Assembly (NCBI GenBank): GCA_001796415.1
Contig: MGML01000061.1
Location: forward strand, 1 to 5,064
Direction: 5' to 3'
Origin: Chloroflexi bacterium RBG_13_46_14
GTDB lineage: Bacteria; Chloroflexota; Dehalococcoidia; Dehalococcoidales; UBA2162
DNA length: 5,064 nucleotides
Part shown: positions 42 through 5,064 of the stretch, in pieces
Numbering within the stretch: position 1 is the stretch's first letter
Layout: each line of letters begins with the position of its first letter
Made by a program: the position numbers and the translations under genes
The notes under the pieces: model-generated
The model's database searches: none
Seen by the model: the letters and a program-made list of their open reading frames with translations, nothing else
What the model was told of the DNA's origin: nothing

Positions 42-70
42 TTGACACGCTGAAACCTTCGTGTTAATAT
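42..70 (+). promoter_or_regulatory. sigma70-like promoter of the operon
   Basis: A perfect -35 hexamer TTGACA (42-47) is followed after exactly 17 bases by TAATAT (65-70), which matches the TATAAT consensus at four of six positions. Transcription would start at about 76-79, inside the inverted repeat at 76-97, as expected for a promoter blocked by an ArsR-family repressor. No other equally good promoter was seen between the genes, so it probably drives the whole array. This is a sequence match only. Confidence 0.7.
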
Positions 71-75
71 ATCTA

Positions 76-97
76 TATATGCAGGTTTATGCATATA
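76..97 (+). promoter_or_regulatory. ArsR-type operator (inverted repeat)
   Basis: Perfect 8-base inverted arms TATATGCA (76-83) and TGCATATA (90-97) flank a 6-base spacer. The site lies between the -10 element and the arsR ribosome binding site and covers the predicted transcription start. ArsR/SmtB repressors typically bind AT-rich imperfect palindromes in this position and leave when metal binds. The regulator encoded just downstream is the obvious ligand. Binding itself is inferred. Confidence 0.65.
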
Positions 98-110
98 GTT
101 GGAGGGCAAT

Positions 111-500
111 ATGAGGGATATGATTAAAGTCTACAAAGCGTTGTCCGATGAATCCAGATTGAGAGTGCTGAACCTGTTATTCGAGAGAGAATGCTGTGTC
201 TGTGAAGTTGAGCAGGTCCTCGAAATTTCACAATCAAAAGCCTCAAGGATTCTCGGGACTTTATATGATGTCGGGTTCTTAAACCTTCGAAAAGAAGGCC
301 TCTGGTCACTCTACTCTATCGACTGGGAAGGAATGGGAGATCATCTCAGAGGTATCCTGGAAGCTGTAAGAAGAGGTTTCACAGGAAATCAGCAAATGGA
401 TGCGGACAGAGAACGTCTGAAAACCACGGTACGGATTGGTCCGGGTTGTGCCGGTAAGACCTGTAGTGAAGTATTGGAAAGCAAACCTGTAAACGCCTAA
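111..500 (+). CDS. arsR: ArsR/SmtB-family metalloregulatory repressor
   Basis: A 129-residue winged-helix repressor of usual family length. Residues 7-23 (VYKALSDESRLRVLNLL) are the typical first helices. Residues 28-31 (CCVC, within ECCVCE) match the ArsR metal-binding box, normally ELCVCDL, so C28, C29 and C31 are candidate arsenite or metal ligands. The recognition helix is around residues 40-52 (SQSKASRILGTLYDV) and the wing around 57-71. The C-terminal tail adds a second pair, C113 and C118, in GCAGKTC. ATG 111 is chosen because GGAGG lies at 101-105, five bases upstream; an in-frame TTG at 99 would contain that ribosome binding site, and ATG 120 is less well placed. It is the first gene of the operon and probably autoregulates through the inverted repeat at 76-97. 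The inducer is probably arsenite, but other thiophilic metals cannot be excluded. Confidence 0.92.
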   Translation: MRDMIKVYKALSDESRLRVLNLLFERECCVCEVEQVLEISQSKASRILGTLYDVGFLNLRKEGLWSLYSIDWEGMGDHLRGILEAVRRGFTGNQQMDADRERLKTTVRIGPGCAGKTCSEVLESKPVNA

Positions 501-531: not shown

Positions 532-1566
532 ATGGAAATACTTACACAAATTATTCAGGGTGGCTGGGAGGCGCTGCTCGAGTACCTTTCGGCACATGTA
601 ATAACCTGCCTTATACCGGCTTTCTTCATCGCCGGCGCAATCGCGATATTCATCTCCCAGGGAGCGGTGCTTCGCTATTTCGGTCCGAAAGCGAAGAAAC
701 TCCTCTCTTACAGCATCGCCTCTGTGTCAGGCACGATTCTTGCGGTCTGTTCATGTACCGTCTTACCGCTTTTCGGCGGAATCTACAAACGCGGTGCCGG
801 TATCGGTCCGGCAGTGGCATTCCTCTATTCAGGTCCGGCAATCAATGTACTGGCTATAGTCTATACCGCACAGATTCTCGGTTTCGATCTTGGCCTTGCC
901 CGGGCAATCGGTGCCGTAGTATTTGCAGCCGGAATTGGCCTCATTATGGCTTTCATATACCGAAAGGATGAATCTCTCAAAGACAGTTCGGCTTTCGATG
1001 CTCTTGAAGCTGATACCGGAGGGAAATCCTGGTGGCAGCAGGTAATATTCTTCGCTGACCTGGTCGGAATCCTGGTTTTCCTGGCTTCGAAAAACTGGAT
1101 CGTGTCCGGTATCCTGTTGGCCATTCTTTTTGTTATCCTGTGGCGCTGGTTCAATAAGGGCGAATTATGGATGTGGATGAAAGAGACCTGGCGGTTCGTA
1201 AAACTAATCGTTCCCTGGCTGCTGGGCGGTGTATTTGTTGCCGGCATGATAATTACTTTTGTCCCGCAGGATGCCGTTACTTCCTGGGTCGGCAGCAATA
1301 CGATACTCTCGAACCTGATAGCTTCTGTTCTTGGCTCGTTGATGTATTTTGCCACGCTGACGGAAGTCCCGATCATAAATTCTTTCATGAATCTGGGAAT
1401 GCACAAAGGTCCGGTACTAACCCTGCTGCTGGCAGGCCCGGCACTTTCACTGCCTAATATGCTGGTAATCAGAAGTATCATGGGAACGAAACGAACACTT
1501 ACTTATGTAGGTCTGGTAATACTATTCTCAACCGTAACAGGCTATATTTTCGGTCTGTTTAATTAA
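532..1566 (+). CDS. ArsP/DUF318-family permease, full size
   Basis: A 344-residue polytopic membrane protein of the predicted permease family that includes the organoarsenical exporter ArsP (PF03773-type). About eight or nine hydrophobic segments are visible, roughly at 21-41, 62-82, 93-115, 121-142, 169-186, 189-206, 222-247, 260-276, 295-310 and 325-343. The family signature is clear in both internal repeats. The first half has C73-S-C75-T-V-L-P, then a GAGIGPAVAFLYSGPAINVL block. The second half has T277-E-V-P-I and a LLLAGPALSLPNML block. The C73/C75 pair in the membrane is the likely metalloid-binding or relay site. The start at ATG 532 has only a weak upstream GAAAGG (514-519). It lies 31 bases after arsR and 15 bases before the selenocysteine thioredoxin, a pairing common for this family. 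Export of trivalent (methyl)arsenicals or a similar soft metalloid is inferred from family and context; the actual substrate is unknown. Confidence 0.85.
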   Translation: MEILTQIIQGGWEALLEYLSAHVITCLIPAFFIAGAIAIFISQGAVLRYFGPKAKKLLSYSIASVSGTILAVCSCTVLPLFGGIYKRGAGIGPAVAFLYSGPAINVLAIVYTAQILGFDLGLARAIGAVVFAAGIGLIMAFIYRKDESLKDSSAFDALEADTGGKSWWQQVIFFADLVGILVFLASKNWIVSGILLAILFVILWRWFNKGELWMWMKETWRFVKLIVPWLLGGVFVAGMIITFVPQDAVTSWVGSNTILSNLIASVLGSLMYFATLTEVPIINSFMNLGMHKGPVLTLLLAGPALSLPNMLVIRSIMGTKRTLTYVGLVILFSTVTGYIFGLFN

Positions 1567-1581: not shown

Positions 1582-1824
1582 ATGAATATCAAGGTATTAG
1601 GCAAAGGTTGAGCAAAGTGCGAAATGCTTGAAAAGACTGTCCGTGAGGTAGTCGAAGAAATGTCGGTAGAAGCTGAAATCGAACATGTCAGGGATATGAA
1701 AGCTATTATGGAATATCCCATTCTGACTACGCCGGGGCTGGTGATAGATGAAAAACTGGTCAGTTCCGGGAAGGTGCCGTCTAAAGCGGAAGTCACGACC
1801 TATATTACAAATGCAATGAGTTAA
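1582..1824 (+). CDS. thioredoxin-like selenoprotein with U-x-x-C active site
   Basis: Read with TGA 1609-1611 as selenocysteine, this encodes an 80-residue protein beginning MNIKVLGKG, followed by U10-A-K-C13. This matches the small thioredoxin-fold family often annotated as redox-active disulfide protein 2, whose members normally begin MKIKVLGxGCxxC, so U10 sits exactly on the first active-site cysteine. A TTP motif (T50-P51) provides the usual cis-proline, and residues 53-63 form the last strands. The start is strongly supported: AGGAGG at 1571-1576 lies five bases before ATG 1582. The next ATG, 1624, has no ribosome binding site and would delete the first strand and active site. It directly follows the permease gene, a known arrangement, so a role delivering electrons to, or taking metalloid from, the permease or ArsC is plausible. 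A sequencing error is unlikely given the neighbouring genes with the same behaviour. A SECIS-like hairpin is at 1635-1653. Confidence 0.88.
1635..1653 (+). promoter_or_regulatory. candidate SECIS element for the thioredoxin-like selenoprotein
   Basis: GACT (1635-1638) pairs with AGTC (1650-1653). After a small internal loop, CC (1641-1642) pairs with GG (1647-1648), closing a GTGA apical loop at 1643-1646. The loop begins 32 bases after the TGA at 1609-1611, within the roughly 16-37 base range known for bacterial SECIS hairpins, and carries a loop G. A weaker, closer fold pairs 1611-1614 with 1625-1628. The stem is short and interrupted, so this is tentative. Confidence 0.4.
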
Positions 1825-1865
1825 TTACCTGTAAAGAATTTCTGTGAAAGAATCGGTGAAGTAAA

Positions 1866-2222
1866 ATGAAAGTAAAGCTGCCGGATATTACTTTACTTGA
1901 CGATCATGTTATTGCTATCGAATCGGCCGTGGGGTGAGGTTGAGCTCCTGATATGATGCGTGCCGTCATCAGTTTCTCAAAAAAGATAACTCCCCTGATA
2001 CCGGGATTAAGTAAGGTAATACCCAGGTGCGGTTATAACTCCGAAATAAAGACGATAATTTTTCGCCATGAAGATATCGGGGTTTATATCGAGCCGCACC
2101 AGATTGTCGCATATAACGTGAGGGATGAAGCCAGGGCAATCGGACTTTTGAATTGGCTTAAGGAGCGAATGACTGCGAATTCAGCAGATAATGGCTCAAA
2201 ATTGAAAATGCCGGGAGAGTAG
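1866..2222 (+). CDS. small selenoprotein with U-G-U motif (paralogue 1)
   Basis: With TGA 1935-1937 and 1941-1943 both read as selenocysteine, ATG 1866 to TAG 2220-2222 encodes 118 residues. The N-terminal part (1-23) ends in ESAVG and leads into U24-G-U26-A-P-D. Then comes a compact alpha/beta domain: MMRAVISF (30-37), LIP (44-46), C55-G-Y-N, a strand-rich middle, and a final helix ending LLNWLKERM. The domain resembles small domains annotated as (Fe-S)-binding proteins, in which a Cys-rich entry is followed by C-x-YN and an E/D-W-L-K helix; this is from memory and only moderately certain. The next gene is a paralogue, 24 identities in 73 ungapped positions from M30 on, with the same U-x-U placement. 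A GGTGA at 1855-1859 precedes the start at six bases. The internal ATG 1953 would discard the motif. Function is unknown: a diselenide redox site, or selenolate ligands for an Fe-S cluster or metalloid together with C55, are options. Confidence 0.82.
1948..1972 (+). promoter_or_regulatory. candidate SECIS element for the UGU protein
   Basis: CTG (1948-1950) pairs with CAG (1970-1972). After a two-base AT bulge, ATGATG (1953-1958) pairs with CGTCAT (1964-1969) with one G-U pair, closing a CGTGC loop (1959-1963). The loop starts 22 bases after the first TGA and 16 after the second, so one hairpin could serve both, as bacterial SelB requires a hairpin close behind the codon. The same loop recurs in the paralogous gene at 2328-2332. 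The loop codons encode Arg-Ala, so part of the similarity may reflect the protein. Confidence 0.6.
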
Positions 2223-2225
2223 AGA

Positions 2226-2558
2226 ATGGTCAAGGATAAACCGGATACCGGTGCGTTAGAGAAATACAAAGCAACTCTGTACCCATACCGGGGTGATAAC
2301 TGAGAATGACAGGGTGGCGGGATGGCACGTGCTGTCATCGAGTTCAAAAAGGATATCGGTCATCTTATACCTTTGATAGGGAAATCGGTCGAAGGTTGTG
2401 CCTACAATCCTGAATCTAATATCGCAGGTTTTCAGGTCAATAACCTGCGTATAATCATAGGGCAAAACCGGATGAATATATATGGGACTGACGACGAACC
2501 AACGATAAAGAAGATTATCGACTGGCTTATCGACAGAATAAGTGAAAATCATCAATAA
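2226..2558 (+). CDS. small selenoprotein with U-E-U motif (paralogue 2)
   Basis: Reading TGA 2301-2303 and 2307-2309 as selenocysteine gives a 110-residue protein from ATG 2226 to TAA 2556-2558. The N-terminal 25 residues differ from those of the preceding gene, then come N25-U26-E-U28-Q-G-G-G and a domain paralogous to the UGU protein: MARAVIEF (33-40), LIP (47-49), C58-A-Y-N-P-E, and a closing helix with DWLIDRI. The two selenocysteines sit 30 residues before the conserved Cys (U28 to C58), against 29 in paralogue 1. GGGAG at 2213-2217 lies eight bases upstream of the start, and only three bases separate the gene from the stop of paralogue 1, suggesting coupled translation. The later in-frame ATG 2322 would remove the U-x-U motif. 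The function is not known; the two proteins may act as a heterodimer or as successive carriers of electrons or metalloid. Confidence 0.8.
2321..2339 (+). promoter_or_regulatory. candidate SECIS element for the UEU protein
   Basis: GATGGCA (2321-2327) pairs with TGTCATC (2333-2339), seven base pairs including one G-U, around a CGTGC loop (2328-2332). The loop begins 25 bases after the first TGA and 19 after the second. It is identical to the loop in the paralogue's hairpin although several stem bases differ, which supports a conserved RNA structure. Confidence 0.62.
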
Positions 2559-2575
2559 ACGTCGTGTAAACAATA

Positions 2576-2887
2576 GTGAAAAAATCAAATCGTAATGCAT
2601 CGGGTAATATAAAAAAACTGACTCTTCCTGACGGTTTACAGGTAGGTATTGTGAACCTGGATAGTATTTTACAGGAGGTTGCCGACCTGGAATTGTCCGA
2701 TACCAGGGTTATTGGAAAGGAACTGATTGACAGGGTTAAAACCTGTAATTATGTAGCGGCTGGTGCGGAAAAGGAATACTTATCAGCGTTGATACACGAA
2801 TATCAAAAAAGATTTTCCCCGGAGGGAGTATCGCATCGTATCGACCCTAAAAAGCCACACGCCGGCTGAGTATTCGGCTGACCATAA
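2576..2887 (+). CDS. small conserved protein with probable C-terminal G-U-V-F-G-U-P selenocysteine tail
   Basis: The body (residues 1-97) contains a KLTLPDGLQVGIVNLDSIL entry, a helical middle (VADLELSDTRVIGKELIDRVKTCNYV) and AGAEKEYLSALIHEYQKRF. It resembles small uncharacterised redox-operon proteins of the LPDGxxVGIxxLD type. At residue 98 the frame meets TGA 2867-2869, and five codons later it ends. Read through, the tail is H-A-G97-U98-V-F-G101-U102-P103, then TAA 2885-2887. The second TGA is 2879-2881, and both are preceded by GGC. Three neighbouring genes recode TGA, and a hairpin follows at 2893-2907, so read-through is the better reading; termination at the first TGA (97 residues) is the alternative. 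Start GTG 2576 is the first possible after an in-frame TAA at 2567, but its ribosome binding site is poor, suggesting coupling to the gene upstream. C84-like internal cysteine (in KTCNYV) is also present. Function unknown. Confidence 0.65.
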
Positions 2888-2892
2888 GGCAA

Positions 2893-2907
2893 TGACTGGT
2901 TCAGTCA
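2893..2907 (+). promoter_or_regulatory. candidate SECIS element at the end of the GUVFGUP gene
   Basis: TGACTG (2893-2898) pairs perfectly with CAGTCA (2902-2907) around a GTT loop (2899-2901); opening the last pair gives a GGTTC loop similar in style to G/U-containing bacterial SECIS loops. It starts 18 bases after the second TGA and 30 after the first. It lies beyond the TAA at 2885-2887 and ends just before the arsC ribosome binding site (2913-2917). It is too short and lacks the T-run of a terminator. Confidence 0.5.
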
Positions 2908-2926: not shown

Positions 2927-3349
2927 ATGAGCGCAACGGTACTTTTTGTATGCGTACATAACTCGGGTCGAAGCCAGATGGCTGCGGCTTTTTTTAACCT
3001 GATGGCGAAAGGTAAGGCAAAGGCCTTGTCTGCCGGTACAAAACCGGCTGATACAGTTAATCCCGTAGTCGTGGAGGCAATGCGAGAAGTCGGTATCGAT
3101 ATCAGCAGCAACAGACCACAGATGCTTACAATGGACCTGGTTGAGAAGGCTGACCGGATGATTACCATGGGCTGCGGTGAAGATACCGAAGCTGTGTGCC
3201 CGGCTGGATTCCTCGAGACCGAAGACTGGGAACTGGAAGACCCTCACGGGAAAAGGCTTGAAGAAGTAAGGGAAATACGGGATGAAGTTAAACGGAGAGT
3301 GGAAAATCTATTAACTGAAATGCAGATAGTCGGTAAACAGCATGAGTAA
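2927..3349 (+). CDS. arsC: arsenate reductase ArsC, thioredoxin-coupled LMW-phosphatase type
   Basis: A 140-residue cytoplasmic enzyme that reduces arsenate to arsenite. The phosphatase-like P-loop is at residues 9-16 (C-V-H-N-S-G-R-S), with C9 the nucleophile that attacks arsenate. C83 and C91 (GCGEDTEAVCP) form the second and third redox cysteines, spaced like C82/C89 of the S. aureus enzyme, and E104-D105-P106 provides the general acid. These features place it in the thioredoxin-recycled class rather than the glutaredoxin class. AGGAG at 2913-2917 lies nine bases before ATG 2927. The gene follows the selenoprotein block by 39 bases and overlaps the next permease gene by eight. Its usual electron donor is thioredoxin, so the selenocysteine thioredoxin upstream is a natural candidate partner, though that is inference. 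All three catalytic cysteines use TGC or TGT, in contrast to the recoded neighbours. Length is normal and no defect is seen. Confidence 0.93.
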   Translation: MSATVLFVCVHNSGRSQMAAAFFNLMAKGKAKALSAGTKPADTVNPVVVEAMREVGIDISSNRPQMLTMDLVEKADRMITMGCGEDTEAVCPAGFLETEDWELEDPHGKRLEEVREIRDEVKRRVENLLTEMQIVGKQHE

Positions 3350-3836
3350 TAACGCGATAATCTTCATCTCTTTATGTGGGATTCTTTCTCTGGTTTCTTT
3401 CCTGATAGACCGACGAAAGACCTGGGAGGGATTTAAACGAGGCTGGCGGATGTTCAGAAACATGCTCCTTCCTTTTATAAATATACTTATTCTGGTAAGC
3501 CTGGTTATTTATTTCATATCCCCGGATGTAATTTCGCGGTATTTGGGAGCCGAATCAGGAGTAACCGGGTTTGCGATTGCTGCTGTGGTCGGTTCAATTA
3601 CTCTGATTCCCGGGTTTATCTCTTATCCTATTGCTGCCGGACTGATCCAGCAGGGGGCATCATATGCTGTCGTTGCCACTTTCATGACGACATTGATGAT
3701 GGTCGGAGTAGTTACCCTGCCGCTTGAGATAAAGTATTTCGGAAGGAGGGCTGCTATTATCCGAAACTCTCTGAATTTCGTGGCAGCTATCATAATCGGC
3801 CTGCTGGTAGGACTGGTAATGGGTGTTATCAAATGA
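3342..3836 (+). CDS. half-size permease A, ArsP/DUF318-like
   Basis: A 164-residue membrane protein corresponding to one half of the full-size permeases of this superfamily. Hydrophobic segments lie roughly at 4-21, 40-60, 72-95, 107-125 and 142-162. Residues 67-76 (YLGAESGVTG) and a P90-G91-F-I-S-Y-P segment followed by an amphipathic L-I-Q-Q-G-A-S stretch match the repeat unit found in the partner gene. The positively charged region near residues 24-40 is probably cytoplasmic. It lacks the CSC motif; its only cysteine is C12. The start ATG 3342 overlaps the end of arsC by eight bases and its own stop overlaps the next start in ATGA (3833-3836), so the three genes are translationally coupled. 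It most likely pairs with the adjacent half to form one functional transporter. The substrate is unknown, probably a metalloid or related species given the neighbours. Confidence 0.8.
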   Translation: MSNNAIIFISLCGILSLVSFLIDRRKTWEGFKRGWRMFRNMLLPFINILILVSLVIYFISPDVISRYLGAESGVTGFAIAAVVGSITLIPGFISYPIAAGLIQQGASYAVVATFMTTLMMVGVVTLPLEIKYFGRRAAIIRNSLNFVAAIIIGLLVGLVMGVIK

Positions 3837-4366
3837 AAATTTTCATGAAAAAATTTCGGAACTATATCTGGATTACCCTGTATTTAGTCCTGACGGTGCT
3901 GTCTTTTATTATCGGTTTCGAGCCGGGCAAGGATATTTTCACTGGCTTTGGCCAGTCTTTTATCGAGATGATTACTTTTATACCGTTCCTGTTTATCATC
4001 GTCGGACTTTTCGATGTCTGGATGCCGAAGGAGAAAATCCAGCGCCATATCGGGCAGGAGTCCGGTGTCAAAGGTATTGCAATCATGGTACTTCTTGCCA
4101 TGCTCCAGGCTGGCCCCCTGTACGGAGCTTTTCCGGTCGCTTATATGCTGTATAGGAAGGGCGCCGGAATCCGGAATATTTTTATTTATCTTGGAGCGTT
4201 TACGTCAATGAAAATCCCGATGCTCGGAATAGAAATTGGCTATCTCGGTATTGAGTACACCATTACCCGTACCCTGGTTTCTCTGCCGCTTTTTATTGGG
4301 ATTGGTTACCTTATGGAAATTATGTTAAAAAACAGAAAATTCGAGGTGTATGACGGGAGTGGTTAA
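3833..4366 (+). CDS. half-size permease B, ArsP/DUF318-like
   Basis: A 177-residue membrane protein paralogous to the preceding gene. Hydrophobic segments lie roughly at 10-28, 41-63, 79-95, 112-132 and 145-165. The shared landmarks are RHIGQESGVKG (71-81, compare YLGAESGVTG), A93-G-P95-L-Y-G-A-F-P, L-Y-R-K-G-A-G, and a K-I-P-M-L-G-I-E-I-x-Y-L-G block that matches T-L-P-L-E-I-K-Y-F-G in half A. It contains no cysteine at all, unlike the full-size permease with its C73-S-C75 pair. ATG 3833 overlaps the upstream stop; another ATG at 3845 is possible but the overlap favours the first. The lengths and reciprocal similarity suggest a heterodimeric two-part permease rather than a broken gene: the reading frames are intact, and half B has its own start and N-terminal charged segment. 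The transported compound is not identifiable from sequence. Confidence 0.8.
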   Translation: MKIFMKKFRNYIWITLYLVLTVLSFIIGFEPGKDIFTGFGQSFIEMITFIPFLFIIVGLFDVWMPKEKIQRHIGQESGVKGIAIMVLLAMLQAGPLYGAFPVAYMLYRKGAGIRNIFIYLGAFTSMKIPMLGIEIGYLGIEYTITRTLVSLPLFIGIGYLMEIMLKNRKFEVYDGSG

Positions 4367-4393
4367 GTGAAAAATACTTTTGGAGTTAACCTT

Positions 4394-5064
4394 ATGAGAA
4401 GTAAAATCCTTGTACTGCTTACACTCGTAGCAACGATAATGATAGTACTTCCGGTAGCTGCTTGTGGACCAAAGCAGGCCTGGGGCGGTGATACCGTACG
4501 CGTACACTACACAGCGAAAACAGAAGATGGTGAAATAGTCGATTCGTCGCTCGACGGTGAACCACTTGAAATTACTCTCGGAGAGGGACAGGTTATTCCC
4601 GGGTTCGACCAGACTGTTATCGGGATGAAGGTCGGTGATAACAAAACTGTAACAGTCTCTGCCGATCAGGCTTACGGATATTATCGTGATGACCTCAAAA
4701 TGGAAGTCGACAGGGATGAACTCCCGGAAGACCTTGATTTAGACGTTGGTATGCAGTTGCAGGCAAGCCAGCCTGATGGTAGTGTGGTTATTTTCACCAT
4801 AACCGGTATATCCGATGAAAAAATAGAAGTTGACGCTAATCATCCGCTTGCCGGTCATGATCTGACATTTTATATCGAACTCGTTGAAATAGTAGCCTCC
4901 GGGAAAGATAAATCCGGCTCAAGCCTGGCATCGGTGTCGCTGGAAGAAGCTCTGTCCAGTGGAAAGGCGACACTGGCCGAGTTCGGTTCTAACACGTGTA
5001 TTCCCTGCAAGCAGATGAAACCGATTCTGGAACAACTGGCTGTCGAGTATAAAGATAAAGTTAA
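4394..5064 (+). CDS. lipoprotein with SlyD-like FKBP prolyl isomerase and thioredoxin domains (3' incomplete)
   Basis: At least 223 residues, cut by the window end. Residues 1-23 are a signal peptide (MRSK, then a hydrophobic core), ending in the lipobox V-A-A-C24, so C24 is likely lipidated and the protein is held on the outer face of the membrane. Residues 33-167 form an FKBP domain of SlyD type: GDTVRVHYTAKTEDGEIVDS, then G-Q-V-I-P-G-F-D (65-72), A-Y-G (93-95), an inserted chaperone flap (about 99-146), and the SlyD hallmark D-A-N-H-P-L-A-G (147-154). A Ser/Gly linker leads to a thioredoxin domain with C202-I-P-C205 followed by K-Q-M-K-P. ATG 4394 is chosen for its TGGAG at 4381-4385, eight bases upstream, and the clean signal peptide; an in-frame GTG at 4367 with GGGAG at 4355-4359 is possible. 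It would catalyse prolyl isomerisation and disulfide reduction of exported proteins, perhaps serving the permeases. Confidence 0.87.
   Translation, partial: MRSKILVLLTLVATIMIVLPVAACGPKQAWGGDTVRVHYTAKTEDGEIVDSSLDGEPLEITLGEGQVIPGFDQTVIGMKVGDNKTVTVSADQAYGYYRDDLKMEVDRDELPEDLDLDVGMQLQASQPDGSVVIFTITGISDEKIEVDANHPLAGHDLTFYIELVEIVASGKDKSGSSLASVSLEEALSSGKATLAEFGSNTCIPCKQMKPILEQLAVEYKDKV

What the first reader, a model, noticed from the sequence alone, without database searches (positions are those of the whole stretch)
1582..2887. Seven in-frame TGA codons in four consecutive small genes: a selenocysteine-rich operon block
Seen directly: TGA at 1609, 1935, 1941, 2301, 2307, 2867 and 2879 lie inside frames that otherwise continue cleanly to TAA or TAG, with ribosome binding sites or close spacing upstream of the first three full-length starts. 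One TGA falls on the known active-site Cys of a thioredoxin-like family. Four selenoproteins in a row, three of them with two selenocysteines each, is exceptional for about 1.3 kb, and it sits inside an ars-type operon. I know of no named system with this exact composition, but I could not search. Inference: a selenol-based metalloid reduction, chelation or hand-off pathway.
Basis: partly seen in the sequence, partly recalled or inferred. Interest (0 to 1): 0.95.

Follow-up and report, generated by a model that had tools for sequence, protein, structure and literature searches.

The report
Selenocysteine-rich arsenic-type operon block
Four neighbouring small genes inside an arsenic-type bacterial operon carry seven in-frame UGA codons that are most likely read as selenocysteine, and their products are predicted to pass arsenic along selenium groups to the cell's export pumps.

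Summary
In detail: all seven TGAs lie in four otherwise open frames. Gene 3 is a thioredoxin-like protein (TIGR00412, above cutoff) whose TGA sits on the active-site Cys of MTH895 and of six plasmid-borne relatives. Genes 4 and 5 are paralogues with a U-x-U motif; gene 6 would end in GUxxGUP. Genes 4-6 matched no Pfam or NCBIfam family.

Twelve other contigs, one a Dehalococcoidales MAG, appear to keep neighbouring copies, nearly all cut by gene callers at the same TGA places. One gene-4 relative is full length with Trp at both U positions, pointing to conserved TGAs. All seven TGAs are followed by a SECIS-like hairpin with GU in the loop, but under the strict published model only 4 of 7 pass, against 20% of other codons.

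ArsR, ArsP, an ArsC-like protein and two half-permeases surround the block. The ArsR-permease-thioredoxin trio with Cys recurs elsewhere, once beside arsD and arsA. I read the block as a selenol version of that trio with three undescribed selenoprotein genes added. Selenium insertion is likely (gene 6 least certain); the arsenic relay is inference. SAO and Tso are known selenoprotein operons, so this is a new variant.

The parts
42..97 (+). Likely promoter (TTGACA-17-TAATAT, 42-70) and likely ArsR operator (perfect 8-bp inverted repeat TATATGCA/TGCATATA, arms 76-83 and 90-97)
   Evidence: the promoter scan as a whole is no richer than shuffles (10 found, mean 8.9), this site scores best of the 10 (10 of 12, the others 9). 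Function inferred.
111..500 (+). ArsR/SmtB-type repressor with ECCVCEVEQVL motif
   Evidence: PF01022 E 1.7e-10; NF033788 68.6 bits over cutoff 55. The arsDA-linked ArsR of locus L004 has ELCVCEIEASL.
532..1566 (+). ArsP-family permease, full length
   Evidence: PF03773 E 1.3e-77
1582..1824 (+). Gene 3: thioredoxin-like selenoprotein (likely), GKGUAKC, U10 = TGA 1609
   Evidence: TIGR00412 100.8 bits over cutoff 62; U10 aligns with Cys of MTH895 1ILO and of six plasmid relatives
1635..1653 (+). SECIS-like hairpin of gene 3, GACTGTC[CGTGA]GGTAGTC
   Evidence: fails the -7.5 kcal/mol limit of the published model (-5.9)
1866..2222 (+). Gene 4: likely double selenoprotein, GUGUAP (TGA 1935, 1941), paralogue of gene 5
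   Evidence: no Pfam or NCBIfam match
1953..1969 (+). SECIS-like hairpin of gene 4, ATGATG[CGTGC]CGTCAT
   Evidence: passes the published model from TGA 1935; from TGA 1941 the loop starts 15 nt off, one short of the limit
2226..2558 (+). Gene 5: likely double selenoprotein, DNUEUQGGG (TGA 2301, 2307), predicted TBP-like fold
2321..2339 (+). SECIS-like hairpin of gene 5, GATGGCA[CGTGC]TGTCATC
   Evidence: passes the published model from both TGAs
2576..2887 (+). Gene 6: probable double selenoprotein ending HAGUVFGUP (TGA 2867, 2879)
   Evidence: least certain of the four
2893..2907 (+). SECIS-like hairpin of gene 6, TGACTG[GTT]CAGTCA, lying after the TAA stop
   Evidence: 0.2% of shuffles have one of 6 bp or more, 1.1% of 5 or more; passes it from TGA 2867 (-9.0), not from 2879 (-6.1)
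2927..3349 (+). ArsC-like (low-molecular-weight phosphatase family) protein
   Evidence: PF01451 E 1.3e-22; arsenate reductase models 80-87 bits, below their cutoffs
3342..3836 (+). Half-length ArsP-family permease A
   Evidence: PF03773, profile positions 18-132 of 294
3833..4366 (+). Half-length ArsP-family permease B, start overlaps the stop of A
   Evidence: PF03773, profile positions 7-142 of 294
4367..5064 (+). FKBP-type isomerase fused to a thioredoxin domain (CIPC), cut by the window end
   Evidence: PF00254 E 2.5e-21, PF00085 E 5e-5

Best explanation
This is an ars-type operon in which four consecutive small genes are likely selenoprotein genes, and their products are predicted to form a selenol relay that reduces arsenic compounds, holds As(III) and hands it to ArsP-type permeases. 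Shown: the frames, the seven TGAs, the ars gene neighbourhood, the gene-3 TGA on an active-site Cys, the shared truncation points in relatives, and hairpins behind each TGA. Inferred: SelB inserts Sec at each TGA (confidence about 0.95 for gene 3, 0.9 for genes 4 and 5, 0.75 for gene 6). Inferred mechanism: ArsR lifts repression when As(III) binds; the ArsC-like protein reduces arsenate; the Sec-thioredoxin (gene 3, UxxC) recycles it or keeps arsenic reduced; genes 4 and 5, small TBP-like domains with a U-x-U loop and a conserved Cys, act as chaperones that bind As(III) through two selenols and one thiol; gene 6 offers a mobile C-terminal tail with two Sec (U-V-F-G-U) that shuttles arsenic or electrons; the full and half-length ArsP permeases export the product.
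For: Frames and TGAs. Neighbours: ArsR, ArsP (E 1.3e-77), ArsC-like, two half-ArsP. Gene 3: TIGR00412 over cutoff, Cys at U10 in 1ILO and in 6 of 6 plasmid loci translated, out of 148 matching records. The trio ArsR-permease-Trx or ArsR-Trx-permease is annotated in L003, L006, L007, L008, found by ORFs and Pfam in L004, and by eye from ORFs in L005; in L004 it lies next to ArsA and ArsD.

Genes 4/5: paralogues (29% identity, E 8e-14 as a single comparison). 12 of 12 gene-5 relatives start at Met33, just after the TGAs. 11 of 12 gene-4 relatives start at Met30/31; the twelfth, P0034, is full length, keeps 19 of 23 residues before the first U and shows Trp at both U positions, as a TGA=Trp gene caller would write (that reading is inferred). 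Gene-5 model: pLDDT 83.8, with a strand at residues 14-19, before the TGAs, in a block of pLDDT 88. Gene 6: 13 of 19 relatives end exactly at HAG where the TGA lies, 4 of the other 6 end in Gly.

Synteny: equal contig lengths and sources point to 12 further contigs carrying two of genes 4-6 each (contig names not shown, so inferred); one has MAG tags JSU58_09330 and JSU58_09340, Dehalococcoidales. Hairpins (stem of 5 or more, loop 3-8 with GU at its start, 16-37 nt off): 7 of 7 TGAs against 8.2% of 1577 other in-frame codons and 7 of 104 other TGAs; with 6 or more pairs 7 of 7 against 4.3% and 4 of 104. 0 of 9 stop codons have one, among them the TGA stop at 3834. Three of the five CGTG[AC] sites on the plus strand are these loops. 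Sec machinery in the order: Dehalogenimonas alkenigignens has selC, Sec synthesis genes and the elongation factor (PMC4918011, passages; order).
Against: No source genome, so selA-D untested. No Cys homologue of genes 4-6 was found among 12, 12 and 19 relatives. Under the full published bSECIS model (energy limit included) only 4 of 7 TGAs (3 of 4 genes) pass, and 20.5% of 1578 other codons do too; gene 3 fails on energy, TGA 1941 on spacing, TGA 2879 on energy. My sharper hairpin rule was set after seeing the hairpins; by energy alone only gene 5 stands out; synonymous recoding keeps a 5-bp hairpin in 2.5%, 16% and 10% of trials for genes 3, 4 and 5. Two UGAs one codon apart share one hairpin in genes 4 and 5. 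Before the TGAs genes 4 and 5 share only 5 of 25 residues, and their U-x-U motifs align two residues out of register. The residues after gene 5's TGAs already make a TBP-like repeat, so an internal start at Met33 is possible; the model is poor at the motif itself (residues 25-27 and 29-31 under 50). Gene 6 has no evident ribosome-binding site and its fold is unclear. Nothing here shows arsenic binding; two gene-4 relatives lack the conserved Cys (P0042, P0046).
Confidence: 0.6

Rival explanations
1. Only gene 3 is a selenoprotein; genes 4 and 5 start at the Met after the TGAs and gene 6 ends at its first TGA, so the other six TGAs are ordinary or untranslated.
Against: P0034 shows the gene-4 N-terminus conserved and read through; codons before gene 4's TGAs score as coding, and both full-length starts have ribosome-binding-like sites, that of gene 5 clear; the gene-5 model puts a confident strand before the TGAs; the hairpin of gene 6 lies after its TAA.
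Confidence: 0.15
2. The genes are selenoproteins but serve another purpose: mercury or other soft metals, organoarsenicals, or general redox defence, rather than As(III) relay.
For: The transporter models SO_0444 (Cu/Zn) and SaoE match the permease below cutoff; SAO and Tso operons show that selenoprotein clusters occur for other chemistry (PMC13188914).
Against: ArsC-like gene in the operon, ArsR with a CVC motif like that of the ArsR beside arsDA, the trio beside arsDA in L004.
Confidence: 0.3
3. The organism reads TGA as Trp or Gly throughout.
For: P0034 carries Trp at the U positions.
Against: The six other genes counted hold 19 TGG and no internal TGA, TGA looks like an ordinary stop at 3834, and gene 3's TGA lies on an active-site Cys.
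Confidence: 0.01
4. Pseudogenes or sequencing errors.
For: Seven stops in 1.3 kb.
Against: All internal in-frame stops are TGA, none TAA/TAG, and most relatives keep the same truncation points at 46-99% identity.
Confidence: 0.01

Closest known systems
SAO system (selenocysteine-assisted organometallic; six selenoprotein genes)
   Same: Tandem selenoprotein genes with an efflux transporter (SaoE), a thioredoxin-like UxxC protein (SaoT) and a Cys-Cys-COOH type Sec protein (SaoC), as named in PMC13188914 and NCBIfam
   Different: The window's permease and thioredoxin fall below the SaoE and SaoT cutoffs (115 of 325 and 18 of 65 bits); no hit to SaoL, SaoB, SaoC, SaoP or SaoX; it has an ArsC-like gene and the UxU pair instead
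Tso (three selenoprotein operon)
   Same: Several selenoproteins and an ArsR-type regulator model (TsoR)
   Different: ArsR scores 24.6 bits against a TsoR cutoff of 115; no TsoA, TsoB, TsoC hit
ArsR-ArsP permease-thioredoxin (redox_disulf_2) trio with Cys
   Same: Gene set and, in L004, L005, L007 and L008, order of the window's first three genes
   Different: Cys instead of Sec in all six loci read; no plasmid record held a match to gene 4, 5 or 6
MTH895 / TIGR00412 thioredoxin-like family
   Same: Gene 3 is a full match
   Different: First active-site Cys replaced by TGA
TATA-binding protein fold
   Different: One repeat-sized protein, no credible sequence match in the PDB, UxU loop; Foldseek has nothing at E below 0.001; DNA binding is not implied

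Membership tests
Bacterial selenoprotein gene | In-frame TGA in a conserved frame | tested here: met
   for the window; in relatives only through truncation points and P0034, as no DNA of relatives was held
Bacterial selenoprotein gene | Cys at the TGA position in homologues | tested here: inconclusive
   Met for gene 3; no Cys homologue found for genes 4-6
Bacterial selenoprotein gene | bSECIS hairpin by the published model (loop 3-9, stem 4-16, G in first two loop positions, 16-37 nt, MFE at most -7.5) | tested here: inconclusive
   4 of 7 TGAs, 3 of 4 genes pass; 20.5% of 1578 other codons pass. I also asked for G or U after the G, which the model gives as the usual case.
Bacterial selenoprotein gene | selA, selB, selC, selD in the host | not testable with these tools
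   No genome held; Sec machinery reported in Dehalogenimonas alkenigignens, same order (PMC4918011 passages)
SAO system | SaoE, SaoT, SaoL, SaoC, SaoB, SaoP, SaoX models over cutoff | tested here: not met
   (ten window genes): SaoE and SaoT far below cutoff, others absent
Tso operon | TsoR, TsoA, TsoB, TsoC models over cutoff | tested here: not met
   only TsoR, 24.6 of 115 bits
TIGR00412 MTH895/ArsE-type thioredoxin | Score over curated cutoff | tested here: met
   100.8 against 62 bits
ArsP permease family (PF03773) | Score over gathering cutoff | tested here: met
   261, 33.6 and 47.8 bits against 32.3 for the three permease genes
ArsC arsenate reductase | NCBIfam cutoffs | tested here: not met
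   87.1 of 157.6, 85.8 of 215, 80.3 of 174.3 bits; member of the wider LMWPc family
TBP fold | Predicted structure matches solved TBPs | tested here: inconclusive

The most novel reading that the evidence does not exclude
A dedicated selenol pathway for arsenic: a Sec-thioredoxin, two TBP-fold chaperones that grip As(III) with a U-x-U-plus-Cys site, and a third protein with a two-Sec tail, feeding ArsP permeases. It would be the first TBP-fold selenoproteins that I know of and, with seven Sec in four small proteins, an ars operon where reduction, carriage and hand-off all run on selenium.
Probability: 0.35. Interest if true: 0.9.

Novelty: new variant of a known kind. Interest (0 to 1): 0.78.

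Why it matters
If right, it adds two selenoprotein families that I did not find in the 2026 list (genes 4/5 and gene 6) and that gene callers cut, and shows a whole arsenic-handling chain moved onto selenols in an uncultured Chloroflexota lineage. It makes testable why selenium would be preferred for binding arsenic, and how one hairpin serves two UGAs a single codon apart.

Full report
What is there. Reading TGA as a residue, four tandem frames are open at 1582-1824, 1866-2222, 2226-2558 and 2576-2887, with one, two, two and two internal TGAs. Around them on the same strand lie ArsR (111-500), a full ArsP permease (532-1566), an ArsC-like protein (2927-3349), two half-length ArsP proteins (3342-3836, 3833-4366) and an FKBP-thioredoxin fusion running off the window. 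A promoter-like site (42-70) and a perfect 8-bp inverted repeat (76-97) precede ArsR. The six other genes hold 19 TGG and no internal TGA in the spans counted; the gene at 3342 ends with an ordinary-looking TGA that overlaps the next start, so TGA does not seem to be recoded throughout.

Gene 3. It scores 100.8 bits against TIGR00412 (cutoff 62). Its U10 falls on the first Cys of the active site in MTH895 (1ILO) and in six plasmid loci that I translated, out of 148 matching records. Those loci hold the same trio of ArsR, permease and thioredoxin in Chloroflexota, Fusobacteriota and Clostridia (in L005 judged by eye from ORFs). In Acetoanaerobium noterae the trio lies beside ArsA, ArsD and a second ArsR, which ties it to arsenic.

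Gene 6. Of 19 relatives, 13 end exactly at HAG where the window has its first TGA; of the other six, four end in Gly (the window's own P0014 left out). That fits G-U but also a true stop. The further codons would give U-V-F-G-U-P. A 6-bp hairpin with loop GTT lies after the TAA; 0.2% of shuffles have one as long. I hold gene 6 as probable only.

SECIS. By a rule of stem 5 or more, loop 3-8 with GU at loop position 1-2, 16-37 nt from the codon, all seven TGAs qualify against 8.2% of 1577 other in-frame codons and 7 of 104 other TGAs; with 6 pairs the figures are 7 of 7, 4.3% and 4 of 104. The seven TGAs share four hairpins, so they are four observations, not seven. Synonymous recoding keeps such a 6-bp hairpin in 1.2% (gene 3), 9.1% (gene 4) and 2.6% (gene 5) of trials, shuffling in 0.2% (gene 6); for 5 bp the figures are 2.5%, 16%, 10% and 1.1%. 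None of nine stop codons has one. Against this, the rule was sharpened after seeing the hairpins. The model printed in PMC13188914 (passages), with its energy limit, passes 4 of 7 TGAs in three genes and also 20.5% of 1578 other codons; gene 3 fails on energy, TGA 1941 on spacing and TGA 2879 on energy.

Lineage and synteny. Gene-4 and gene-6 relatives in one MAG are JSU58_09340 and JSU58_09330, Dehalococcoidales. Equal contig lengths and sources across searches suggest 12 contigs beside the window that each carry two of genes 4-6. Passages of PMC4918011 report selC, Sec synthesis genes, the elongation factor and Sec proteins in Dehalogenimonas alkenigignens of the same order; passages of PMC5736913 and PMC9751293 report Sec formate dehydrogenases and glycine reductases in other Chloroflexota. 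The window's own genome was not held, and that it belongs to Dehalococcoidales is inferred from these relatives.

How it likely works. ArsR senses As(III); the ArsC-like protein reduces arsenate; the Sec-thioredoxin recycles it or keeps arsenic reduced; the UxU proteins bind As(III) with two selenols and perhaps the conserved Cys; gene 6's tail passes arsenic or electrons on; ArsP permeases export. Every step of this paragraph is inference from families and neighbourhood.

What is known. Table 1 of the 2026 review PMC13188914 (section 7, parts 1 and 2 read; part 3 not; other passages) says it covers 119 families; I saw none with UxU like genes 4/5 nor one like gene 6, but it does list PF13192 thioredoxin-like selenoproteins (CxU, UxC), SaoT (UxxC) and the SO_0444 transporter with UxC. 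SAO and Tso are known multi-selenoprotein operons. The two papers cited for them (Haft and Gwadz 2023; Haft and Tolstoy 2025) were not held, so I cannot say that they do not mention this cluster; NCBIfam of June 2026 has no model that hits genes 4-6. Literature searches showed in the parts of their listings that I saw no paper on this cluster. It is therefore filed as a new variant of a known kind.

Noticed in passing
window 3342-3836 and 3833-4366: Two half-length ArsP-family proteins in tandem with overlapping stop and start, both matching the first part (positions 18-132 and 7-142 of 294) of the profile; perhaps a two-subunit permease.
   Followed up: partly
window 4367-5064: An FKBP isomerase fused to a thioredoxin domain (CIPC) with an N-terminal hydrophobic stretch and a Cys, perhaps a lipoprotein, follows the permeases and is cut by the window end.
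   Followed up: no
L004 2525-6758: Acetoanaerobium noterae megaplasmid has ArsR-ArsP-thioredoxin facing an arsR-arsD-arsA set, without listed genes in PLSDB's table.
   Followed up: yes
P0029-P0033: A more distant branch of gene 6 with other C-terminal tails, four of five ending in Gly before the stop; their DNA may show further UGA codons.
   Followed up: no
L005 3809-4243: The Subdoligranulum thioredoxin relative has an N-terminal extension with a Cys-rich CCCVGNC stretch.
   Followed up: no
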